DNA of 46,482 nt, from the IMG/VR virus record IMGVR_UViG_3300028388_001949, positions 1-46,482 of that record; one strand, 5' to 3'. A program made the position numbers and the translations under genes. Each line of letters opens with the position of its first letter. The first letter of the stretch is position 1. Under the pieces are notes generated by a model that saw only the letters and a program-made list of their open reading frames with translations, did no database searches and had not been told where the DNA came from. This stretch comes from a virus. Below, one piece after another: positions 1 through 46,428 of this stretch.

Positions 1-481
1 AAAAATCGACTTTATGGTCGAAATGATGAAAAATCCTCGTTTAATGGCCTTAATGCTTAAAACCATAAAAGATGAAAAAGACGCCAAAAATACTTTTGCG
101 GCTATCGACAAAGCTTTAGGCGGAAGCGCGACTCAAGTTGGACGTCGGTTACCGTATGTCGAAAGAGCCGTGGGCGAAGAACCGTTGCCAGAGCCTCCTG
201 CGGAAACTGAAGAAACGCAAGAACCACAAGCCTCGGTCCAAGCACCACAACAGAATCTAATGGCACAGCGGTTTGCTCAACCTACGCCGACGGTGATTCA
301 ACCACGGCCCACGGCTCCTGTAGTGCAACCTGCACCACAACCATCAGCTCCTGTAGTGCAACCTGCACCACAAGGCGGAGCAAATCCACAGCAACGTCAA
401 CAGATGGCGGCCATGTTCCCGAATGATCCGATTATTCAAGCGGCCGGAGGTGGCGGCGGAATCGGAAGCTTGTTCTCATGA
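1..481 (+). CDS. Pro/Gln-rich late-operon protein, 5' end cut by the window edge
   Basis: The frame is open from the first bases of the window, so the true start is probably outside it; an internal ATG lies at 14. The visible part has a charged helical N-terminus, then a Pro/Gln/Ala-rich linker that contains two near-identical copies of a PSAPVVQPAPQ-like unit, and ends in a Gly-rich tail (AAGGGGGIGSLFS). The low-complexity linker suggests a structural or assembly accessory protein; no family is recognised. Its stop overlaps the next start (ATGA). The partial gene at 46442-46482 would join this frame exactly if the molecule is circular, giving a protein of about 173 residues. Confidence 0.7.
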   Translation, partial: KIDFMVEMMKNPRLMALMLKTIKDEKDAKNTFAAIDKALGGSATQVGRRLPYVERAVGEEPLPEPPAETEETQEPQASVQAPQQNLMAQRFAQPTPTVIQPRPTAPVVQPAPQPSAPVVQPAPQGGANPQQRQQMAAMFPNDPIIQAAGGGGGIGSLFS

Positions 482-906
482 TGCAGGACGTTTTGGAACT
501 GATGGACCAGTCGGAGTTTCATCGGCAGTATTCTGTAGACGACATTGAGCGGTTAATTGTTCCGGCCATCGAGAACAATCGATGCGTGGTTTATTATCAC
601 AAAGATATGATAAAACCCGTCGGAATGTTCACATATATGTGGTTAAACCAAGAAGCCGAGCGTGGATATTTAGAAGGCACGCGAAAACTTCAAGCAGAAG
701 ACTGGGCAACAGACCACCTAAATGGCACACTATACGTTATCGACTTTATTGCTCCTTACAACAACGGAGTGACTATTGCTCGTAAGTGCCGCAGATATTT
801 ATCTGCACATACTTACAAGGATAAAGAGGGCCGATTTGTCCGAATGACAAAAGGCGGACGAATTGGAAGGGTAGGACGAGTTCATGCGAAGCCAACGTAC
901 AATTGA
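478..906 (+). CDS. HlyC-like toxin-activating lysine acyltransferase
   Basis: The 142-residue protein resembles the HlyC/CyaC family, which transfers a fatty acyl group from acyl carrier protein to internal lysines of RTX toxins. The catalytic His is matched by H15 in SEFHRQYS and the catalytic Asp by D89 in the VIDFIAPYNNG block; the intermediate AEDW motif (residues 73-76) is also family-typical. Length is slightly below the usual ~170 residues. Start is the ATG of an ATGA overlap with the upstream gene. No RTX toxin is encoded in the window, so the substrate is unknown; neighbours are low-complexity late proteins. Family assignment is by recall of motifs, the role is inferred. Confidence 0.8.
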   Translation: MMQDVLELMDQSEFHRQYSVDDIERLIVPAIENNRCVVYYHKDMIKPVGMFTYMWLNQEAERGYLEGTRKLQAEDWATDHLNGTLYVIDFIAPYNNGVTIARKCRRYLSAHTYKDKEGRFVRMTKGGRIGRVGRVHAKPTYN

Positions 907-21545: not shown

Positions 21546-23741
21546 ATGGCCGATAATTCTCAGATAGCTGAAGACAGTGCTCAACAATATTTGAGACAGC
21601 AAATGCGGGGTCAGCTTAATCAAAGACGGATCGATGACCTCGCTCCAGCTTTTGATATGCGTCAAGAGCGATATGCCGATTATTTTGAAGACGTCAATTC
21701 TGAGAATCCTTTGATTAGCGGTACGGCACAGCGTGTTTTGGACAAAAACACGCAGGATATGATTGATTATTATAACTATTTGCAGTTTGAGCAGGAGCCT
21801 CAGAACCTTCTGGAACGCCGTGCGACAGAGGAAGCGGTCTATACCGGAACCATACCTTTTGGTTATGAGGACTCGGACTACCTTGGGGCGCGAGGAAGCC
21901 AAGGCGTTTTAGGCACAAGCTTGCGGCCGGAAGTAGCAGACGAGGCTGGAATTCCTCGACAGGTTTACATCGCCGGTAATAATGCCGCTTTTTCTCAGGT
22001 TCCGATCCACGAAGGAACGCATCCTATTATTGAGTTGCCGAAGAAGGTTGAGGAAAACGCCTTGCGTGCTTTGGACTATTATCGGATGCGTCGTCAAGGG
22101 GAAGACACAGAACTTCCGGAAAGGTTGTTGCGTGAACGTGGGTTTGATCTCAACGATCCACAAGAACTTGGATATGTTCGATTTAACGCCTTGCGTGGCG
22201 CCATGTCGATGACCGATGAGGTTTACGACAATTTGTCAGAAGCTGACCGTCAAGAAATGAAAGAACAGGTCGAGCAGTTTAAGCAGGAACCGGGCTTTAT
22301 TGGCAAGCTGTTTGGTGAGGAAGAAGGCGTCAAAGAAATGATGTTTGCTCCATATCACCTAGAAGAAATGAGCGAAGACGAATTTTACAAACTTTTAGAT
22401 GCGGCACCTGCTTTTCGATTTAACGAAGCGGAGTCGTATCGTGGCAGAGGGCGCTTGTATATGAATCCACGGCCCGAGGTCCAAAACTATGAACTGGGAG
22501 GCGGTGTAGGATACTTTGAACGGCAACTATCCGATGCCGGCTTGGAACCGTCTCAGTTTGAACAAGACGTTACGCAACAACCGGGCCGAGAGTACGGAGA
22601 CATTTTGCCATTTAGTCGGCCAGAATCTGTACAACATCCTGTTTACGGTGAGATGGAAGAACCGTCTCAGTTCGACCCTGCTGGCGGAATCATGGGCATG
22701 GCAGGCCGTGCTTTAGCTACTTTTGATCGGAAGCTATCTGGAGTACCGGTTTCAGACGAGCAACTAGCTGGTGCGGCTATGGATATTGTTCCAACTAGCG
22801 CGGGCATTGCTTCTGCCGCTTTTGGCCCAGCACTATCTCCCGGAATGCTTGGAGCGTTTATCACGAAACACGGATCACCGTTTGATTTTGATGTATTTCG
22901 CCGGCCAACCAAAGAGACTTCGGGTTTAACGTCAGCACGAGCAAATTTAGGGCCTGCAATTTATTCTGGAGAAGAGCCTGTAGCCACCGCTTTCGCTCAA
23001 AAATTTGCAAAAAGAAAAGCCGCGGGCGAAGAAGACGAATCGTATGATGTTGCCGTTTTGTTTGGTGACCCAGAAGATCAAGTAGCTCGTCCTCAAATGT
23101 ACGATCTTTCAAACCCCGATGCCGAGGAAGGTCTATCTTTAGTGTTACAAGACGCTAGTGCCCGAGCAAATACGCATGTTCCAGACTTAGAGGGTCAGCG
23201 ATCTTTTTACTTTTTTGATGACGGATCTGCGCTTATTCACAACTATGACCCCAATCCCGGTACTCCTCGGATATTACCTTTGGATAAAGGCGAAGCCTTT
23301 GTCTATACAGCAAAGGTAAATGCTGAGAAAGATCAATACCTCGACTGGTCAGCACCGTTTTTCAAACAAAGCGAGTTTGTTCGTAACACGTTGCGTCCGT
23401 TCCTTAAACAATACGGCATTGACGATAGAAGCACGGGCGAAGAAATGTGGAACACTATCGCCAAAGCAAACAATAGCGATGCGATGACCACTAACGCTAT
23501 CCTTGAACAGGCCGGAATAAAAGGCAATAAAGTCGTACAATCTGGAAATGAAATCCTTGCGACGTTTAATCCTGACGACATGAGTATTCTTGATAAACAA
23601 GAACTGGGCGACGTACTGGGCTACGCCGAAGGTGGTGTCGTATCTTTGAAAGACAGAGCAGTAAACATGACTCGCGGACCACGGTCCAATGGTATTATGC
23701 AATACGTTCCTTATATGACCGGAGCAACGAATGGCTATTGA
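21546..23741 (+). CDS. polyvalent-like protein: HExxH motif plus ADP-ribosyltransferase-like domain
   Basis: 731 residues between terminase and portal. The N-terminal part has a zinc-metalloprotease-like HExxH motif, PIHEGTHPI (H155-H159). Residues about 438-690 resemble the ART-PolyVal domain of polyvalent proteins: KHGSPFDFDVF (H442), AIYSGEEPVATAF (Y473), YLDWSAPFFKQS, TGEEMWNTI, LEQAGIKG and SGNEILATFNP (E669), giving a possible H-Y-E triad. A hydrophobic Gly/Ala-rich stretch lies near residues 380-437, and the end has YAEGGVV. If correct it may be packed in the virion and modify host proteins on entry. Overlaps the portal gene by 11 bases. Domain calls are from recalled patterns. Confidence 0.7.
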   Translation: MADNSQIAEDSAQQYLRQQMRGQLNQRRIDDLAPAFDMRQERYADYFEDVNSENPLISGTAQRVLDKNTQDMIDYYNYLQFEQEPQNLLERRATEEAVYTGTIPFGYEDSDYLGARGSQGVLGTSLRPEVADEAGIPRQVYIAGNNAAFSQVPIHEGTHPIIELPKKVEENALRALDYYRMRRQGEDTELPERLLRERGFDLNDPQELGYVRFNALRGAMSMTDEVYDNLSEADRQEMKEQVEQFKQEPGFIGKLFGEEEGVKEMMFAPYHLEEMSEDEFYKLLDAAPAFRFNEAESYRGRGRLYMNPRPEVQNYELGGGVGYFERQLSDAGLEPSQFEQDVTQQPGREYGDILPFSRPESVQHPVYGEMEEPSQFDPAGGIMGMAGRALATFDRKLSGVPVSDEQLAGAAMDIVPTSAGIASAAFGPALSPGMLGAFITKHGSPFDFDVFRRPTKETSGLTSARANLGPAIYSGEEPVATAFAQKFAKRKAAGEEDESYDVAVLFGDPEDQVARPQMYDLSNPDAEEGLSLVLQDASARANTHVPDLEGQRSFYFFDDGSALIHNYDPNPGTPRILPLDKGEAFVYTAKVNAEKDQYLDWSAPFFKQSEFVRNTLRPFLKQYGIDDRSTGEEMWNTIAKANNSDAMTTNAILEQAGIKGNKVVQSGNEILATFNPDDMSILDKQELGDVLGYAEGGVVSLKDRAVNMTRGPRSNGIMQYVPYMTGATNGY

Positions 23742-26145
23742 AAAAAACGTACCCTCTCAGCTAGATCCTGAAGATTTAGCGGCAGAGATCGAAATCGAGC
23801 TTCCTGACTCGCAAAACAATGTACTCGCCATGATTGAAGGCGAAGATATTGGTGAGATCGAAATTTCTCCAACAGAAGACGGCGGAGTCGAAGTCGATTT
23901 TGAACCACAAGACGGCATGATGGAGGATACGGGCTTTTCCGCAAACCTTGCTGAACAGCTTCCTGATCGTGAGCTGGGTCGCATTGCGGCAGAGATCATG
24001 GAAGAGTTTGATGCCAACAAGGCGTCAAGACAGGAATGGGAAGACGCGTATGCCGACGGTTTGGAGCTACTGGGTTTCAACTACGAAGAACGCACTCAAC
24101 CTTTCCGCGGGTCTTCTGGTGTAACGCATCCACTGTTGGCAGAAGCCGCAACGCAGTTCCAAGCACAGGCGTTTAACGAGCTGTTACCTGCTTCGGGTCC
24201 CGTCCGCACGACGGTTATTGGCGATAAGTCAAAGGAAAAAGAAGCGCAGGCACGCCGTGTTCGCCAGTTTATGAACTATTACATCACCAATGTAATGGAA
24301 GATTACACGCCGGACATGGACCAAATGCTGTTTTATTTGCCTTTGGCCGGTTCTACATTCAAGAAAGTGTACTTTGACGAGGGCTTAGGCCGTGCGGTGA
24401 GCAAATTTGTGCCCGCAGAAAACCTTGTTGTGCCTTACGAGACCTCTGATTTAGATACTTGCCCCAATATTACGCAAGTTGTGCGTATGCCGCTCAACGA
24501 TTTACGCAAAAAGCAGGTATCGGGCTTCTATTTGGACGTCCCGGTCAATCCGGGCGAGAGTCAGAGCGACTCGGTTACTGATGAAATTCAGCGGATTGAC
24601 GGTGTGACACCGTCTCAGATCGATTACGACGCCACGTTGTTGGAGTGTCATATCGATTTGGACCTCGAAGGCTTTGAAGAAGTCGATGAAAACGGCGAAA
24701 TGACTGGAATTAAGGTTCCTTATATCGTCACTTTGAGCTATGACACGGGCGAAATCCTCGCGATCCGTCGTAATTACCAAGAAGACGACGAATTGCGTAA
24801 GAAAATTCAATATTTTGTACATTACAAGTTCTTACCGGGGTTTGGTTTCTACGGTTTGGGCTTGATCCACACCATTGGCGGCCTTTCGCGCACAGCAACC
24901 TCTGCACTTCGTCAGTTGATCGACGCGGGTACGCTCTCGAACCTTCCAGCAGGCTTCAAAGCCCGCGGACTACGGATCAGGGACGATGATGACCCGCTTC
25001 AGCCGGGTGAATTCCGTGATGTGGACGCTCCGGGAGGCGCGATCCGTGACAGCTTGATGCCTTTGCCGTTCAAAGGCCCCGACCCAACGTTATTCCAGTT
25101 GCTAGGTTTTGTTGTAGACGCCGGACAGCGGTTCGCGACCATTACAGATATGAAGGTGGGCGACGGCAATCAAGGCGCCGCTGTGGGCACGACAATCGCG
25201 ATGCTGGAGCAAGGTTCCCGCGTCATGTCAGCGATTCACAAACGCTTACACTACGCGATGCGCGTAGAGTTTAAGATTCTGGCTCGCGTTATGGGCGAAA
25301 GCCTACCGCAAGAATATCCGTATTCTGTTGAAGGCGAAGACGCCACCATCATGGCGGAAGACTTTGACGAGCGGGTAGACGTGATCCCAGTATCGGATCC
25401 AAACGTATTCAGTCAGGCACAGCGGATTGTATTGGCACAGACCAAGTTGCAGTTAGCGGGTGCCGCACCTGAAATTCACAATATGTATGAAGTCTATCGC
25501 GATATGTACGACGCGTTAGGCGTGAAAGATGTAGATCGGATCATGAAGGCGCCACCGGACGACGATTCGCGGCCCACGGATCCTGCACAGGAGAATATTG
25601 ATGCACTCGACATGGGACAGTTGGAAGCCTTCGAGGGACAAAATCACCAAGCGCATATTATGTCGCATATGGTTTTTGGTTCAACGCCGATGGTTGCTGG
25701 TTTGCCTCCTGTGGCGATGGCTCTTCAAAAACACATCATGGAGCACGTTCAGATATCTGCTCGGGAGCGCGCTACGGCTGAGTTTGAGCAAATTACCGCG
25801 CAACAAGGACCTGCGGCAAACCCAGAACAGCGTATGATGCAGTACGAGGGGCTTGTAGCTCAGTACATTGCTGAAGGGATGCAACAAGTCAAGCAGTTGT
25901 CTGCACAAGTATCTGGTCAAGGTCCTGATCCTGTTGTTCAGCTTAAGCAACAAGAGTTGCAGTTGGATGCACAGGAAGCCGAGCGTGATGCACAGTTGGA
26001 TGCGGCTAAGTTACAATTGGATCAACAGACGTTGCAGATGCGGGACCGTCAGTTCTATGACCGATTGCAAGCACAGGCGGCACAAACTCAAGCGCGTATC
26101 GACGCAGGTCGTGAGCGTGAATTGATGAAAATGAGAGGACAGTAA
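23731..26145 (+). CDS. portal protein
   Basis: 804 residues. After an acidic, probably flexible N-terminus (1-65) come blocks typical of long podovirus portals: NKASRQEWEDAYADGLELLG, PFRGSSGVTHPLLAEAATQF, FNELLPASGPVRTTVIGDKS, LPLAGSTFKKVYFDEGLGRA and VPAENLVVPYETSDLDTCPN. The C-terminal 180 residues are Gln/Ala-rich helices (barrel-like), as in P22/SU10-type portals. It forms the dodecameric ring at the capsid vertex through which the terminase pumps DNA. Starts inside the end of the polyvalent-like gene. Confidence 0.92.
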   Translation: MAIEKNVPSQLDPEDLAAEIEIELPDSQNNVLAMIEGEDIGEIEISPTEDGGVEVDFEPQDGMMEDTGFSANLAEQLPDRELGRIAAEIMEEFDANKASRQEWEDAYADGLELLGFNYEERTQPFRGSSGVTHPLLAEAATQFQAQAFNELLPASGPVRTTVIGDKSKEKEAQARRVRQFMNYYITNVMEDYTPDMDQMLFYLPLAGSTFKKVYFDEGLGRAVSKFVPAENLVVPYETSDLDTCPNITQVVRMPLNDLRKKQVSGFYLDVPVNPGESQSDSVTDEIQRIDGVTPSQIDYDATLLECHIDLDLEGFEEVDENGEMTGIKVPYIVTLSYDTGEILAIRRNYQEDDELRKKIQYFVHYKFLPGFGFYGLGLIHTIGGLSRTATSALRQLIDAGTLSNLPAGFKARGLRIRDDDDPLQPGEFRDVDAPGGAIRDSLMPLPFKGPDPTLFQLLGFVVDAGQRFATITDMKVGDGNQGAAVGTTIAMLEQGSRVMSAIHKRLHYAMRVEFKILARVMGESLPQEYPYSVEGEDATIMAEDFDERVDVIPVSDPNVFSQAQRIVLAQTKLQLAGAAPEIHNMYEVYRDMYDALGVKDVDRIMKAPPDDDSRPTDPAQENIDALDMGQLEAFEGQNHQAHIMSHMVFGSTPMVAGLPPVAMALQKHIMEHVQISARERATAEFEQITAQQGPAANPEQRMMQYEGLVAQYIAEGMQQVKQLSAQVSGQGPDPVVQLKQQELQLDAQEAERDAQLDAAKLQLDQQTLQMRDRQFYDRLQAQAAQTQARIDAGRERELMKMRGQ

Positions 26146-28669: not shown

Positions 28670-28867
28670 ATGAGTGATATATACTTATCAGAAGCTGTGT
28701 TTCGGCTTATCCGGGAACAGCGGACGGCTATTGTTGATTGCCTTCAATACAACGGCGTGAAAACAATGGAACACTATCGTGAAATGATGGGCATGATGAC
28801 TGCCCTCGATCACATCGAACAGGAACTCAAGAGCCTGCTAGATAAACAGGAGCAATTAAATGACTGA
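28670..28867 (+). CDS. small helical protein of unknown function
   Basis: 65 residues, two helices (YLSEAVFRLIREQRTAIVDC; MTALDHIEQELKSLLDKQEQ). AAGAG gives a weak ribosome binding site. It overlaps the GroES-like gene by 8 bases. Similar small helical proteins occur near phage head genes; no function can be read. Confidence 0.6.
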   Translation: MSDIYLSEAVFRLIREQRTAIVDCLQYNGVKTMEHYREMMGMMTALDHIEQELKSLLDKQEQLND

Positions 28868-29279
28868 ACAAGTCGCGACGCTTGAAGAAGCGTACACAGA
28901 GGATCGTAGAACCTTTCTTGATCCAGAAGCCATTGGCAAAACTCTTTTAGACAGACTACCAACCCCTACTGGTTGGAGAATCCTTATCCTGCCCTATCGT
29001 GGTAAAGGGAAGACAGAAGGCGGAATACTTCTGGCGGACAAAACCATCGAACAACAGCAGGTGTCCACCCAAGTCGGCTATGTCCTTAAAGTAGGGCCAT
29101 TAGCATATAAAGACTCTGAAAAATTCCCAGATGGAGCGTGGTGCGAGGAAAAAGATTGGGTAATGTTTGCCCGATATTCTGGCTCTCGTTTCAACATTGA
29201 TGGGGGAGAAGTACGGATTCTTAACGACGATGAGATTCTGGCTCGTATTTCAGATCCAGAAGACGTTTTACATTTCTAA
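28860..29279 (+). CDS. groES: GroES-like co-chaperonin
   Basis: 139 residues. After a 30-residue extension, LPTPTGWRILILPYRGKGKT opens a Cpn10-like beta domain, with the mobile-loop-like GKTEGGILLADKT, then VGYVLKVGPLA and WVMFARYSGSRFNIDGGEVR and ILNDDEILARI at the end. T4 gp31 is the known phage precedent: it replaces host GroES to fold the capsid protein in GroEL. Just upstream of the scaffold and capsid genes, which fits. The family is clear by pattern; client proteins are inferred. Confidence 0.85.
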   Translation: MTEQVATLEEAYTEDRRTFLDPEAIGKTLLDRLPTPTGWRILILPYRGKGKTEGGILLADKTIEQQQVSTQVGYVLKVGPLAYKDSEKFPDGAWCEEKDWVMFARYSGSRFNIDGGEVRILNDDEILARISDPEDVLHF

Positions 29280-30172: not shown

Positions 30173-30646
30173 ATGGCTGAAGAAACGAAAACTGTAAGCC
30201 GGGCTTCCCGCGCTAGTGAAACCAGAGCTAAAACGGCACAGCGTAAGCCGTGGGCTCCACCGTCCATGTTGGACGCACCACCTGCCCCAGATGGGTTTAA
30301 ACACCGGTGGATTCGCGCTGAGACTCGCGGTTTTGATGACCGTAAGAACATCAGTGCAAAGCTAAGAGAAGGATGGGAGTTGGTTCGTGCAGACGAATAC
30401 CCCGACTTTGAAGCACCGGTTATAGATTCAGGTAAGTATGAAGGTGTGTTTGGTGTTGGCGGATTGATCCTCGCAAGGATCCCAGAAGAAACTGTCGAAG
30501 AGCGTACTGCCTACTTTAGTCAGCGCAATCACGATCAGATGGAAGCTGTGGATCATGATATGATGCGAGAGAATCAACATTCGACAATGCGGATCAGTAA
30601 CCCTGATCGGCAACAACGTGTAACTTTTGGTGGCCCTCGTAAATAG
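30173..30646 (+). CDS. conserved head-module protein of unknown function
   Basis: 157 residues. A basic N-terminus (SRASRASETRAKTAQRKPWA), then PPAPDGFKHRWIRAETRGFD and KLREGWELVRADEYPDF and a Gly-rich GVGGLILARIPEETVEERTA segment. I recall this layout just upstream of the capsid gene in other marine phages, without a function. Three bases after the scaffold stop. Confidence 0.75.
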   Translation: MAEETKTVSRASRASETRAKTAQRKPWAPPSMLDAPPAPDGFKHRWIRAETRGFDDRKNISAKLREGWELVRADEYPDFEAPVIDSGKYEGVFGVGGLILARIPEETVEERTAYFSQRNHDQMEAVDHDMMRENQHSTMRISNPDRQQRVTFGGPRK

Positions 30647-33696: not shown

Positions 33697-33876
33697 ATGA
33701 AGCCAGAAGAAGTTTTATCGAAGTTAGAGCAACACGAAGCTGAGTGTAACTTGCGCTACAAGCGGATTGAGGAACGTTTAGAGGATCAAAAAGCGTTTCT
33801 TGAGAGGCTGGATTTGCGGATGTGGGGCATTGCGGGGCTAATTGTAGCTACCGCGATTGCGGAGAGGTTTGTGTGA
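33697..33876 (+). CDS. small coiled-coil membrane protein
   Basis: 59 residues from ATG 33697 (a GTG three codons upstream is possible). A coiled coil (LSKLEQHEAECNLRYKRIEE, DQKAFLERLDLR) leads into one C-terminal membrane span (MWGIAGLIVATAIAERF). The next start overlaps the stop (GTGTGA). Resembles small phage hemolysin XhlA-like or spanin-type proteins in layout only. Confidence 0.6.
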   Translation: MKPEEVLSKLEQHEAECNLRYKRIEERLEDQKAFLERLDLRMWGIAGLIVATAIAERFV

Positions 33877-34103
33877 AAAGTCGAGTCAATCTTGGAAACG
33901 GTGCTTGCCCAACTAAGGCATCAAAGACCGTTGTGAGAATGAAAAAAGGTGGGGAAGTCAAGTCTGGCGGAAAGATCTGTCCCGCGGGTAAGGCTTGGGC
34001 AAAGCGCACTTTTGATACATATCCAAGTGCGTATGCAAATATGGCCGCATCAAAATACTGCAAAGATCCAAACTACGCTAAAAAGTCGAAGAAGAAAAAG
34101 TAA
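33873..34103 (+). CDS. small basic protein with Cys pairs and KKGGEV motif
   Basis: 76 residues with GTG start at 33873; GGAGAGG (33861-33867) is well spaced. The N-terminal half has MKKGGEVKSGG; the conserved core ICPAGKAWAKRTFDTYPSAY and MAASKYCKDPNYAKK is one I recall in many marine phage head modules. Basic Lys tail. Function unknown. The stop overlaps the next start. Confidence 0.7.
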   Translation: MKSRVNLGNGACPTKASKTVVRMKKGGEVKSGGKICPAGKAWAKRTFDTYPSAYANMAASKYCKDPNYAKKSKKKK

Positions 34104-34423
34104 TGGGTCAGCTTAAAGAATGGCGTGATCAAGACTGGGTTCGCATAGACAGCTCTGGAAACATTGTTGGTGAATGCGGCACATCTAAAGACAAAAAGAA
34201 TCCAGACCGTTGTTTGCCTCGTTCAAAAGCTCAAAGCTTGAGCAAATCTGAGCGTGCTTCTACTGCTAGAAAAAAGAAGCGCGAAGGGGCCAAAGGGAAG
34301 CAAGTGGTTAAGAACACCAAAAAAGCCGAAGTCAAGATGGCTTGCGGCGGAGCAGTTCGTCGTAACCATAAAGGCTGTGGTGCGGTTATGAATGAACGCC
34401 GTAAGAAGACAAGGTACAGTTAA
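34103..34423 (+). CDS. small basic conserved protein
   Basis: 106 residues. DQDWVRIDSSGNIVGECGTS then DRCLPRSKAQSLSKSERAST and ARKKKREGAKGKQVVKNTKK match a phage family I recall without function (possibly DUF5872/DUF6321-like). The C-terminus has MACGGAVRRNHKGCGAV, containing the AxGGxV motif, and is strongly basic. Likely virion-associated. Confidence 0.72.
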   Translation: MGQLKEWRDQDWVRIDSSGNIVGECGTSKDKKNPDRCLPRSKAQSLSKSERASTARKKKREGAKGKQVVKNTKKAEVKMACGGAVRRNHKGCGAVMNERRKKTRYS

Positions 34424-42375: not shown

Positions 42376-45300
42376 ATGGCGATTATTCAAGGCAATGCCC
42401 ACAAGAGTTCAGTCAGTGGTTTCTACCCAAAGACCATTGAAGGATCGCTACGGTTTAATGAAGACGATACATCATATTTAACTTGGTCACCATCTGGAAC
42501 ATCTTCAAACGGGAATTTGTTTACATTTAGTTGTTGGTTTAAACCGTCTGTTATAAGTACATATAATATGATTTGGCAACCGTACCAAAATGGTAGCAAT
42601 TTCGGAAATATTGTACTTTCTTCAGACAAAATCACCGTATATAGCCAAGTTGCAGGAAGTGCCAAGGTACAAGTTCAAACAAATGCCGTATATCGTGATC
42701 CTTCATCTTGGTATCACTTAGTCGTCAAATTCAACGCTACATCTGGCAGTGAAGAAATAAAAATTTATATCAACGGTACAGAGCAATCCTTAACAACTAC
42801 GACTGCTATGACAGCGCATACAACATTGTTTGGTCAAAATGGTGTTACTCAATATTTCGGTGATTATTTCAATCAGTCTGGTGGTTTTGACGGCTATATG
42901 GCCGAAGTCCACTTCACAGACGGTACAGCCTACGATGCTGATGCGTTCGGTGAGTTTAAGAACGGTGTGTGGGTGGCTAAGACTCCAGATGTCACCTACG
43001 GTACGAATGGGTTCCATCTACCGTTTACTGGCACCACGGGTTTGTACACCGAAACCACGGGCGGAGCGTTTTCGTTAACGTCTGGCAACGATATACAAAG
43101 AACTCAGGGTAACGATAGTGCGGCATTATTCTCTGGGTTAATTACTGGTGATTTTGATATAGAGTTTAAGTTTAGCCCTGCTTCTTCCTCTTTGACTCCG
43201 GGAGATGCGTTTACTGTTGGTTTCTTCCCTGAATCTGGGTACGACTCTCTAAATTACAACAGTGGATTTGCAGGTCAGTCTACATACTGGGTAATTCAAA
43301 ATGGTGCGAGCGGTGCAAGTGCCATTAACAACACAGATGGGAGTACTGCGTTAAGCTCAACAACTACATCAGATGTTTTTCAACTGACCAGAACTTCTGG
43401 CACATTTAAAATATTTAAGAATGATACATTAGTTCATACGTTTACAACGACAGGTACGGACGATGGTTACATGTTTTTTGGATCGGGCGACAAAAACGAA
43501 ACCATTACTTTGCTAGACATAACCTTCAATGATGTCAACGGAGAGTCGTCATCCACGCCTTTTGAATCTGCTTTAGCAATCGGCGGTGACGCATCTGGGC
43601 GAGGCAACCATTGGACATCTAATAATTTAGAACCTATTGATGTGGTGTTAGATAGCCCGACTGATAACTTCTGTACTTGGAATCCGATTGCAAAACAAAC
43701 AGGGTCAATGGCGGGTACGCCTAATTTATCAGATGGAAACCTGACCATTACTTCAGGTTCAGGTGATATGTCTGCACACGGTACATTCCTTCTATCCAGT
43801 GGTAAGTGGTATTGGGAAATAACTTATGTGTCTGGAAACAGCGCATATGCAGGTATTGCGTACAATGGCTCAAGCACAAATAGGGAAGATGGGGTTGTAT
43901 ATTGGAAAGATGGTCGCAAAGCCATTGACAACGTATTTACCTCATACGGAGCTAGTTATTCAGCAGGTGATGTAATTGGCATTGCGCTAAATGCAGATGA
44001 CAATGAAATAACTTTCTACAAGAACAATGTGTCTCAAGGTGTTATTTCATATACACCACAATCGACAGACCCTACTCCTGCGATTATTCTTGCGGCTTCA
44101 GGAAGCACGACAATCACAGCCAACTTCGGCCAACAAGACTTTGACTACACACCTCCAGAAGGCTACCTCGCACTCAGCACAGCCAACCTACCCGATCCTG
44201 AGATTGATCCTGCACAGGGTGAACTCCCTGCGAAGTATTTCGACACCTTCCTTTACACAGGTAATGGATCGCAATTACAGGTAGGGGATGTTATTAAGAA
44301 ACCTGCTGATACGATTGATATTACTAATTCGTTGATCTTTGACGATGGCAGTAGTACATATCTTTCAAGAACAGTCGGTACTGCCACAAACACTTATACA
44401 GTCTCTCTTTGGTTAAAACGCTCAGACATACCTGATGAATATATGTATCTTTTTTCATCTGGCTCGACCGGTATCGGGATATCAAAAGCATCTTCAACAG
44501 GTGCGGGTACGCTGTATATTTTTAGCGGCAGTACACAATGGATTACTTCAAGCCAAAAATTATTGGATACAAGCACTTGGTATCACATTGTACTAGCAAA
44601 CAATGCCGGATCAGCGAGTGTTTATTTGAACGGTCAGGAAATTGCTTCAGGTCTAACTTTAGGCAGTTTATCTACTAGCGCAAACGCAACACAAATTGGA
44701 AGGTATTCTGGTTCAGGCCTTTATTACCTAAACGGCTATTTAGCTGAAGTTCACTTTGCAACCGGAACAGCGTATGACGCAGATGACTTTGGCAACTTTG
44801 ACGCTAATGGCATCTGGATTCCTAAAGCCGTATCTGGAATTTCATACGGTAATGACGGTGCTTACCTAGACTTCTCTGACGATACAAGCACGACTACGCT
44901 TGGTGAAGATCAGGCAGGTTCTAACGACTGGACGCTGAACAACTTTGCGACAACAGATCAGGTGGAGGATAGTCCGACTGATAATAACTTTGCAACTTTT
45001 GCAACAGATACAAACATGACTTTATCGGAGGGTAATAAAGAAATCAGGTCAACTTCTGATTTTGAATCTGCCCACGTTCATATCCCGTGTTCCGGTAAGA
45101 ATTATTTTGAGATTGAGTATGTAACAAAGTCAGCTAGTAACGACACAATTGGCGTGGTTTCTTACGCACAGACAACACGAAACTGGGGTGCTTCTGTTTC
45201 AAGCGGTACTGGCACGAATGGTCGTTTAGGGTATGCGATGGCATTTGAATACTCCAGAACAGATGCAGGACAAGAATGTGATGAAGGCTCTGTAACATCT

Positions 45301-46428
45301 AGCGTATTCACAGCATTATCCGCAGGAGATGTTGCTCAAATTGCAGTAGACACCGACACAGGTAATATTTGGTTTGGTACGGATGGAACGTGGGAAAACT
45401 CTGGTGATCCTGCGGCAGGAACTAACCCATCAACGACTAAAACGTGGGAAGATTTTACCATTGCGCTTGGGGGTCACCCAACAAACAAGTTTAGAATACG
45501 AGAAGAATCTGAATGGGAGTATACGGCCCCAACAGATTTTGTTGCGTTGACAGAAAACAACATCACAGTCAATGACCAGAATCTAGAGAGTCCTGACTTT
45601 GTGTGGATCAAGAACCGTCAACAAGGTGACAAGCATCACCTGTACGACTCAGTGCGTGGTGTTCAGAAGGCGTTGTACTCAGACGTAAACACAGAAGAAA
45701 CAGATGAGCCTAACGGGTTATTGGATTTCAATGCGAATGGATTTACTGTCGGTTCTGAAGTTGAAGTCAACACAGCAAATGAAGACTACGTTGCTGATGG
45801 TGCTTCAAACGCCACGGTAGGTCACGGGCTTACTGTTGCGCCAGAAATGATACTTGTAAAAAATAGATCTGCTGTTGGATCTTGGTGTGTATATCATTCA
45901 TCACTTCCAAGTTATCAGTATATTCTGAGACTTGACTCTAACGGTGCACAATCAACAAGTAATACGTCTTTTGGGGCCGCACCATCAAGTACCTTATTTA
46001 CGGTAAACCAAAACAGCGGAACTAATAACACAAACATTAACACCAATGACTACATAGCCTACTGCTTCCACAGTGTCGAAGGCTTCTCAAAGTTTGGAAC
46101 ATACACAGGCAACAATAGTACTAATGGTCCGTTTGTATACACAGGATTTAGACCTGCTTTTTTAATGGTAAAAGCGTATAACACGACTTCTAGTTGGGTT
46201 ATTCGGGATACGGAGCGAGACGAAGGTATAAACGATGGAGACATAACACCATTTATGTATGCTGATGCCACTACCGCTGAATCTACAATTAGTACATCTG
46301 GAAGGCACATAGATTTTCTAAGTAATGGCTTTAAAGTCCGTGAAAACTTGGGCATTACTAATTCAACTAACAGTTTTATCTACATGGCCTTTGCCGAAAA
46401 CCCATTCAAATACTCAAACGCTCGATAG
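42376..46428 (+). CDS. 1350-residue modular adhesin (LamG and SPRY domains)
   Basis: Domains in order: LamG-like (about 25-195; FDGYMAEVHFTDGTAYDADA), a beta-sandwich (about 230-395), SPRY/B30.2-like (about 450-590; SSGKWYWEITYVSGNSAYAG), second LamG (about 649-828; YLNGYLAEVHFATGTAYDAD), second SPRY-like (about 872-1054; GKNYFEIEYV), and a C-terminal block (1055-1350; SPDFVWIKNRQQGDKHHLYD, PEMILVKNRSAVGSWCVYHS) of the DUF7483 type. Such lectin-like modules suit receptor binding. Likely the tail spike or fibre that decides host range. AATACATGG start follows the fibre stop by three bases. Confidence 0.85.
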   Translation: MAIIQGNAHKSSVSGFYPKTIEGSLRFNEDDTSYLTWSPSGTSSNGNLFTFSCWFKPSVISTYNMIWQPYQNGSNFGNIVLSSDKITVYSQVAGSAKVQVQTNAVYRDPSSWYHLVVKFNATSGSEEIKIYINGTEQSLTTTTAMTAHTTLFGQNGVTQYFGDYFNQSGGFDGYMAEVHFTDGTAYDADAFGEFKNGVWVAKTPDVTYGTNGFHLPFTGTTGLYTETTGGAFSLTSGNDIQRTQGNDSAALFSGLITGDFDIEFKFSPASSSLTPGDAFTVGFFPESGYDSLNYNSGFAGQSTYWVIQNGASGASAINNTDGSTALSSTTTSDVFQLTRTSGTFKIFKNDTLVHTFTTTGTDDGYMFFGSGDKNETITLLDITFNDVNGESSSTPFESALAIGGDASGRGNHWTSNNLEPIDVVLDSPTDNFCTWNPIAKQTGSMAGTPNLSDGNLTITSGSGDMSAHGTFLLSSGKWYWEITYVSGNSAYAGIAYNGSSTNREDGVVYWKDGRKAIDNVFTSYGASYSAGDVIGIALNADDNEITFYKNNVSQGVISYTPQSTDPTPAIILAASGSTTITANFGQQDFDYTPPEGYLALSTANLPDPEIDPAQGELPAKYFDTFLYTGNGSQLQVGDVIKKPADTIDITNSLIFDDGSSTYLSRTVGTATNTYTVSLWLKRSDIPDEYMYLFSSGSTGIGISKASSTGAGTLYIFSGSTQWITSSQKLLDTSTWYHIVLANNAGSASVYLNGQEIASGLTLGSLSTSANATQIGRYSGSGLYYLNGYLAEVHFATGTAYDADDFGNFDANGIWIPKAVSGISYGNDGAYLDFSDDTSTTTLGEDQAGSNDWTLNNFATTDQVEDSPTDNNFATFATDTNMTLSEGNKEIRSTSDFESAHVHIPCSGKNYFEIEYVTKSASNDTIGVVSYAQTTRNWGASVSSGTGTNGRLGYAMAFEYSRTDAGQECDEGSVTSSVFTALSAGDVAQIAVDTDTGNIWFGTDGTWENSGDPAAGTNPSTTKTWEDFTIALGGHPTNKFRIREESEWEYTAPTDFVALTENNITVNDQNLESPDFVWIKNRQQGDKHHLYDSVRGVQKALYSDVNTEETDEPNGLLDFNANGFTVGSEVEVNTANEDYVADGASNATVGHGLTVAPEMILVKNRSAVGSWCVYHSSLPSYQYILRLDSNGAQSTSNTSFGAAPSSTLFTVNQNSGTNNTNINTNDYIAYCFHSVEGFSKFGTYTGNNSTNGPFVYTGFRPAFLMVKAYNTTSSWVIRDTERDEGINDGDITPFMYADATTAESTISTSGRHIDFLSNGFKVRENLGITNSTNSFIYMAFAENPFKYSNAR

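What the first reader, a model, noticed from the sequence alone, without database searches (positions are those of the whole stretch)
21546..23741. Polyvalent-like HExxH plus ADP-ribosyltransferase-like protein between terminase and portal
The sequence shows an HExxH motif (H155-H159) and, 280 residues later, an ART-PolyVal-like block order (KHGSPFDFDVF, AIYSGEEPVATAF, YLDWSAPF, TGEEMWNTI, ILEQAGIKG, EILATFNP), giving a possible H442-Y473-E669 triad. ART-PolyVal domains are known from polyvalent proteins of phages and plasmids, thought to be delivered into the host. Placing one next to the portal gene, with an 11-base overlap, suggests co-expression with the ejection machinery. A protease and an ADP-ribosyltransferase in one virion-borne protein would be a new effector layout.
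Basis: partly seen in the sequence, partly recalled or inferred. Interest (0 to 1): 0.8.

Follow-up and report, generated by a model that had tools for sequence, protein, structure and literature searches.

The report
Swappable ADP-ribosyltransferase cassette in phage
A marine phage gene squeezed between its DNA-packaging and portal genes carries a probable ADP-ribosyltransferase enzyme as an exchangeable cassette; related phages carry other payloads, or none, in the same place, which fits a known class of proteins that phages are thought to inject into bacteria.

Summary
A 731-aa ORF sits between TerL and an SU10-type portal, with HEGTH at 155-159 and H442, Y473 and E669 in the stated blocks. 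No Pfam or PHROG model hits it. A profile of 76 phage 'LDWDKPL' ARTs does: P0001 E=1e-9 against 0.42 for the best of 6,000 shuffles, and hhalign 99.5% over 227 columns. Members of that family hit PF18760 ART-PolyVal above its cut-off. The ART reading is therefore supported by homology. Both AlphaFold models were too poor to test the fold. HEGxH is conserved in every relative that covers it, but the domain matches no metallopeptidase profile, so the protease is unproven.

The layout is not new. MPTase plus ART proteins and ARTs beside terminase/portal are published. Phages with TerL/portal up to 89%/77% identical carry MPTase-motif polyvalent-type proteins in the same slot. What is new is the anatomy: a ~310-aa carrier, YxxGG junctions, an exchangeable cassette (ART, two unrelated ones, or none) and a near-invariant tail. 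Carrier and cassette trees disagree (window vs L002: carrier 78-83%, cassette unrelated; vs L001: carrier 49%, cassette 93%). The tail profile picks out other polyvalent-type proteins (8 of its top 8 hits). Packaging and injection are inferred.

The parts
21546..23741 (+). 731-aa modular polyvalent-type protein
   Evidence: intact ORF; homologues in the same slot in IMG/VR contigs; purifying selection
21546..22478 (+). carrier module, residues 1-311 (function unknown, mostly helical in a low-confidence model)
   Evidence: conserved in 10 relatives at 41-83% identity; stands almost alone in L013/L014, 360 aa, and L022, 358 aa
22008..22022 (+). HEGTH (HExxH), residues 155-159
   Evidence: HEG[TML]H in all nine relatives that cover it; no metallopeptidase profile match
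22488..22508 (+). first YxxGG junction, residues 315-321 (YELGGGV)
   Evidence: present in every homologue at the end of the carrier module
22509..22850 (+). spacer, residues 322-435, with an Ala/Gly-rich hydrophobic stretch (378-436)
   Evidence: partly shared with L002/L012 (REYGD[IL]LPF, FDP..AGGI), by inspection
22851..23606 (+). ART-like cassette, residues 436-687
   Evidence: hhalign 99.5%, 227 columns, against the LDWDKPL ART family; hmmsearch E=1e-9
22869..22871 (+). H442, predicted NAD-binding His
   Evidence: in an invariant KHGS in all three cassette sequences; aligned with H of YHG[TS]
22962..22964 (+). Y473, predicted second triad residue
   Evidence: invariant in three sequences; aligned with Y of GLYFAE
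23550..23552 (+). E669, candidate third triad residue
   Evidence: invariant in three sequences; aligns by eye with E of RPP1 GEIMVV; the LDWDKPL family mostly has N there
23622..23738 (+). second GG junction plus near-invariant C-terminal tail, residues 693-731
   Evidence: 82-100% identical among relatives with unlike cassettes; the tail HMM ranks MPTase/ART polyvalent-type C-termini first
23731..23741 (+). 11-nt overlap with the portal gene
   Evidence: the same overlap in L001, L002, L003, L004, L019 and L023
20054..21526 (+). large terminase (upstream neighbour)
   Evidence: phrog_38 E=3e-110
23731..26145 (+). SU10-type portal (downstream neighbour)
   Evidence: PF23899 1e-10, phrog_1216 2e-51

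Best explanation
The gene is a payload slot of the polyvalent-protein kind. A conserved carrier module is joined through YxxGG linkers to an exchangeable cassette and a conserved C-terminal tail. In this phage the cassette is an H-Y-[E] ADP-ribosyltransferase of the ART-PolyVal type. The protein is probably made late with terminase and portal, loaded into the head (carrier and/or tail acting as the loading part) and ejected with the DNA. Inside the host the ART would transfer ADP-ribose from NAD to a host macromolecule, to aid take-over or block a defence. Shown here: gene position, modular anatomy, cassette exchange, homology of the cassette to ART-PolyVal proteins, and the shared tail. Inferred: ART activity, head loading, ejection, target.
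For: Homology chain from window to LDWDKPL family to PF18760, with clean controls (another domain 2%, reversed query 0.7%, shuffles). The triad candidates are conserved. The same slot in close relatives (TerL 73-89%, portal 67-77% identical) holds LHE[IVLM]QHA[IV]Q proteins, one of them SprT-like above the Pfam cut-off. In other phages ART ORFs lie between TerL and portal (L043, L053, L072, L095, L140), and a PcfJ-like protein does in phage DSL-LC04. Cassette exchange: window/L002 carrier 78-83%, cassettes unrelated; window/L001 carrier 49%, cassette 93%, tail 97%; L013/L014 have no cassette. The tail HMM's top 8 of 3,718 C-termini are all MPTase- or ART-motif proteins, P=2e-11. Iyer 2017 and 2022 argue that proteins in this context are head-packaged.
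Against: No direct Pfam or PHROG hit for the window protein. The predicted structures failed (pLDDT 39 and 46). The third catalytic residue is ambiguous. There is no virion proteomics, so packaging and ejection rest on gene position and published analogy. Only three distinct cassette sequences of this subtype were found.
Confidence: 0.6

Rival explanations
1. The ART cassette is real but acts inside the producing cell late in infection (for example on a defence that senses terminase or portal, or on host translation). It is not packaged into virions.
For: Gene position only says that it is expressed with late genes. Iyer 2022 offers the same alternative for ARTs beside terminase/portal.
Against: The shared tail and the recurrence of polyvalent-type proteins in this slot fit a common trafficking need better. 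T4 Alt is the published precedent for a head-packaged ART.
Confidence: 0.2
2. The protein is mainly structural (a minor head or portal-associated factor). The carrier and tail are the working parts, and the cassettes are degenerate or ornamental domains.
For: The carrier and tail persist without any cassette in L013/L014, and L022 keeps the carrier alone. The 11-nt overlap with the portal is widespread. The LDWDKPL family has N rather than an acid at the third position.
Against: The cassette is under purifying selection (dN/dS 0.08-0.19) with H, Y and E kept. Relatives with near-identical portals have quite different proteins in the slot, so no one slot protein seems essential to assembly.
Confidence: 0.15
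3. The HEGTH carrier is an active zincin-like protease that cuts the polypeptide (perhaps at the GG junctions) and frees the ART, as proposed for other polyvalent MPTases.
For: HEG[TML]H is conserved down to 41% identity; a conserved EE pair 10-11 residues on lies in a predicted helix; relatives have a real MPTase motif in this slot; self-processing is the published proposal for MPTase polyvalent proteins.
Against: No profile match to MPTases (hhalign 1.1%; no Pfam hit at E<=10). HEGTH is flanked by prolines, and the model shows no helix there, at low confidence. No GxE[AV]R third-ligand motif.
Confidence: 0.2

Closest known systems
ART-PolyVal (PF18760) / polyvalent-protein ARTs (type: Roseovarius Plymouth podovirus 1 vRNAP, CBX87992)
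   Same: HG[TS]..F strand-1 block, [GA]xxY strand-2 block, LDWxxP block, GIxG block and a strand-5 block in the same order; phage late-gene context
   Different: not hit directly by the Pfam model; about 100 extra residues between the second and third blocks; a loose LDW[SD].P block; strand 5 reads NEILATFNP instead of RNYVVFD
Polyvalent proteins (Iyer et al. 2017, PMC5512222)
   Same: one polypeptide with unlike modules, at the terminase/portal locus, with architecture that changes between close relatives
   Different: only one module has a supported enzymatic assignment; the carrier module is not one of the described domains as far as Pfam shows; exchange is internal, between a conserved carrier and a conserved tail
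MuF-effector fusions (phage Mu gp30, SPP1 gp7; MuF polymorphic toxins, PMC5576092)
   Same: a conserved head-gene module next to the portal with exchangeable effector domains, ARTs among them
   Different: no MuF profile hit; the cassette is internal with a conserved tail after it; no immunity gene was looked for
T4 Alt
   Same: works-like model: a head-packaged ART ejected with the DNA
   Different: R-S-E clade ART; unrelated context; proven packaging

Membership tests
ART-PolyVal (PF18760) | direct match to the Pfam profile | tested here: not met
   no hit at E<=10 or E<=1 in the genome search
ART-PolyVal (PF18760) | homology to proteins that are members | tested here: met
   hhalign 99.5% over 227 columns; hmmsearch 1e-9; four of five family members tested pass the PF18760 cut-off
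ART-PolyVal (PF18760) | His in strand 1 and Tyr in strand 2 | tested here: met
   H442 and Y473, invariant in three sequences and aligned with YHG[TS] and GLYFAE
ART-PolyVal (PF18760) | acidic residue in strand 5 (Asp in Iyer 2017; Glu in the type sequence as read here) | tested here: inconclusive
   E669 kept in three sequences, aligned by eye with E in RPP1, but N in the LDWDKPL family with a one-residue shift
ART-PolyVal (PF18760) | ART fold with clustered triad | tested here: inconclusive
   AlphaFold pLDDT 38.8 with a 3-sequence alignment; Foldseek found no match at E<=0.001
ART-PolyVal (PF18760) | NAD-dependent ADP-ribosylation | not testable with these tools
   needs an assay
Zincin-like metallopeptidase of polyvalent proteins | conserved HExxH | tested here: met
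   HEG[TML]H in nine of nine relatives covering it
Zincin-like metallopeptidase of polyvalent proteins | profile similarity to MPTases | tested here: not met
   hhalign 1.1% against 99 LHExQHAIQ sequences; no Pfam hit
Zincin-like metallopeptidase of polyvalent proteins | Glu ligand in the following helix | tested here: inconclusive
   invariant E169/E170 in a predicted helix 166-183, low confidence, spacing of only 10-11 residues
Polyvalent proteins | two or more unlike domains in one chain, one enzymatic | tested here: met
   carrier plus ART cassette plus tail, shown separable by exchange
Polyvalent proteins | encoded with virion or transfer genes | tested here: met
   between TerL and portal
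Polyvalent proteins | carried in the virion and delivered to the host | not testable with these tools
   no virion proteomics for this phage
MuF proteins | MuF domain profile | tested here: not met
   no Pfam or PHROG MuF hit

The most novel reading that the evidence does not exclude
The GG junction plus C-terminal tail is a portable tag, for head loading or for site-specific processing. Marine phages of this group put it on otherwise unrelated injected proteins (zincin, ART, GNAT, unknown cassettes) encoded in the TerL-portal slot, and payloads are swapped behind a common loading signal. No such tag was found described in the papers searched.
Probability: 0.3. Interest if true: 0.75.

Novelty: new variant of a known kind. 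Interest (0 to 1): 0.45.

Why it matters
It places a probable phage ADP-ribosyltransferase that the curated domain libraries miss, and shows that one late-gene slot in marine phages is a payload bay whose contents change while carrier, tail and neighbours stay. If the tail is a loading tag, it gives a direct handle on an open question: how phages choose which proteins to pack and inject.

Tried and rejected
Direct family searches found nothing. tblastn of the window protein, of the full-length L007 relative, and (against plasmids) of its ART part found no credible relative in the phage or plasmid collections. Two genome-contig scans found none. The ART HMM PF18760 found nothing in this phage or nine related records. 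AlphaFold models of the cassette and of the carrier were too poor to use, and Foldseek on them gave only noise. MPTase homology of the carrier was tested and failed. MuF membership was rejected for lack of a profile hit. An ART reading of the L194 slot protein (NEILTVF) looked good by eye but failed the profile test. phrog_873 ('endolysin') matches the L007 cassette weakly (E=0.003) and LDWDKPL ARTs strongly; its name probably comes from another part of that 1,277-position family. Searches were rejected by the tools (query too short, term too short, too few fixed bases, wrong frame).

Full report
OBSERVATION. The ORF at 21546-23741(+) encodes 731 aa, starts 19 nt after TerL and ends 11 nt inside the portal gene. 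TerL matches phrog_38 (3e-110). The portal matches PF23899, the SU10 portal (1e-10), and phrog_1216. The window is a 46,482-base virus record. The nearest named phages by portal are DSL-LC04, HTVC027P, 023Pt_psg01 and HTVC023P (53-54% identity).

RELATIVES. No relative of the whole protein was found among 50,697 phage records. IMG/VR gave distinct versions in L001, L002, L003/L004/L006, L007-L010, L011, L012, L013/L014, L019, L022 and L023. Translating them shows a modular protein. A carrier of about 310 aa ends in V[QRK][AN]YxxGG. A variable part follows, and then a near-invariant tail, A[DE]GG[VI]VSLKD[RK]AVNMTRGPRSNGIMQYVP[YF][MI]TGATNGY. L013/L014 (360 aa) go straight from carrier to tail with no cassette. 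Cassette A (ART-like) is in the window, L001 and L007-L010. Cassette B (FIA[SG][YF]SPVYSHNIP...) is in L002, L011, L012 and L019. Cassette C is in L003/4/6 and L023. L022 (41% identical carrier) has only a short tail, ending FFKKIRGPRA.

EXCHANGE. Module trees disagree. Window and L002 share 78-83% of the carrier, but their cassettes are unrelated (28%, background). Window and L001 share only 49% of the carrier, but 93% of the cassette and 97% of the tail. This is direct evidence that cassettes move between carriers. Selection keeps the cassette: dN/dS is 0.08 against L001 and 0.19 against L007, the latter with saturated dS.

THE ART READING. Pfam and PHROGs miss the domain. The LDWSAP...Q block recalled a phage ART subtype, so a degenerate DNA pattern for LDWDKPLxEQ was scanned in IMG/VR. 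An alignment of 76 of them reads YHGSPHKFDKF...GHGLYFAENEEVAKEY...lYeVdi...LDWDKPLSEQ...TGEELY..L...AS..L..aGIpGIrYLD..SR...RNYVVFD...I. The HMM scores L007 at 3e-11, L001 at 1e-10 and P0001 at 1e-9; the best of 6,000 shuffles scores 0.42. hhalign of the three-sequence cassette alignment gives 99.5% over 227 columns (window residues 436-687). The carrier alignment gives 2% and the reversed query 0.7%. Five members of the family were scanned with Pfam: all five hit PF18760 ART-PolyVal, four above its curated cut-off, and some also show weak PARP similarity. The chain window to LDWDKPL family to ART-PolyVal is therefore solid. H442 and Y473 align with the family His and Tyr. E669 is kept in all three cassette sequences, and by eye aligns with Glu in RPP1, the type sequence of the family (GEIMVV). 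The LDWDKPL family has Asn there, and the profile alignment puts E669 one residue off.

THE HExxH READING. HEG[TML]H is conserved in every relative that covers it, including L022, where the flanks differ. The carrier matches no Pfam metallopeptidase. hhalign against 99 LHExQHAIQ zincin-type sequences gives 1.1%, although the best local alignment does superpose the two HExxH motifs. The protease is possible but unproven.

THE SLOT. Contigs with the LDWDKPL ART often carry TerL or portal relatives. The ART ORF lies between them in L043, L053, L072, L095 and L140, or after the portal in L045, L047, L134, L143, L151 and L158. L053 and L144 also carry LHE[ML]QHA[IV]Q upstream of the ART, so HExxH plus ART at this locus is an existing layout. 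In phages with TerL 73-89% or portal 67-77% identical to the window's (L176, L178, L194, L210, L219, L249, L257, L259, L275, L280), the slot holds an LHE[IVLM]QHA[IV]Q protein. The one from L176 is SprT-like just above the Pfam cut-off. L280 and L178 also have a GNAT-like region by inspection; for L280 the Pfam score is weak, E=0.15. DSL-LC04 has a PcfJ-like protein in the slot. Published work predicts MPTase and ART domains combined in virion-borne polyvalent proteins and notes ARTs beside terminase and portal (PMC5512222; PMC9503650).

THE TAIL. A profile of only the last 42 residues of the window family was run against 3,718 ORF C-termini from the ART and MPTase contigs, 175 of which belong to ART- or MPTase-motif ORFs. 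All eight top hits were of that kind (P=2e-11 over all ORFs; 4e-7 against ORFs of at least 250 aa; rank test p=4e-8). L210 was best at E=1e-4 (AEGGIVSLLDVARNTGRGPMG) and L280 next at 0.002. Only two hits pass 0.01 individually, and L249, L257 and L275 are close relatives of one another, so the P-value overstates independence. The tail looks shared beyond this carrier, but the claim is statistical. GG motifs near the C-terminus are also enriched in ART/MPTase ORFs compared with other ORFs (31% against 15%, p=3e-6), and [YFM]xxGGx[VIA] occurs 7 times in the window ORFs against 1.6 expected.

HOW IT MOST LIKELY WORKS. Made late with TerL and portal, loaded into the head, ejected with DNA, and ADP-ribosylating a host target. 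Anatomy, exchange and ART homology are shown; activity, loading, ejection and target are inferred. Confidence is 0.9 for ART homology (E values and controls above), about 0.6 for the payload mechanism as a whole, and 0.2 for a working protease.

VERDICT. The novelty claim should be lowered, since polyvalent proteins at this locus are a known kind. The cassette exchange and the shared tail are the parts worth following.

Noticed in passing
window 478-906, 884-1555, 30173-30646, 33822-34103, 34103-34423: [YFM]xxGGx[VIA] motifs recur in other ORFs of this genome, in several near the C-terminus and followed by a basic tail; 7 matches against 1.6 expected, never more than 5 in 1,000 shuffles.
   Followed up: partly
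L266, L173, L199, L203, L217, L279 (C-termini): Many MPTase-containing phage proteins end in KKMKRGGLASRK-like tails, a second kind of GG-plus-basic C-terminus.
   Followed up: partly
L002, L011, L012, L019 and L003/L004/L006/L023: Two further cassettes (B and C) in the same carrier with no Pfam hit; both follow a shared linker FPD[AT]IKEGIGTLVEYAPKV.
   Followed up: no
L013/L014 (and L168/L169): Cassette-less carrier (360 aa) running straight into the tail, a natural empty form.
   Followed up: partly
L280:3746-5260 and L178:1252-3150: Slot proteins of close relatives that seem to pair an LHEVQHA[VI]Q motif with a GNAT-like region (weak Pfam hit for L280, E=0.15) and the shared tail.
   Followed up: partly
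L194:2590-6114: MPTase-motif slot protein with an ART-like look (FHGT..., NEILTVFD), but no significant profile match.
   Followed up: partly
L025:4319-6574 and L024:3906-6584: HTVC027P and 023Pt_psg01 have two large unannotated proteins each between TerL and portal; one has HEAAH, another an HNH-like VDHFDKV...NLRVI stretch, both by eye only.
   Followed up: no
window 28860-29279: A phage-encoded GroES-like co-chaperonin in the head-gene region, also found in relatives.
   Followed up: no
window 42376-46428: 1,350-aa tail-fibre-like protein with laminin-G/SPRY-type lectin domains and a C-terminal DUF7483.
   Followed up: no
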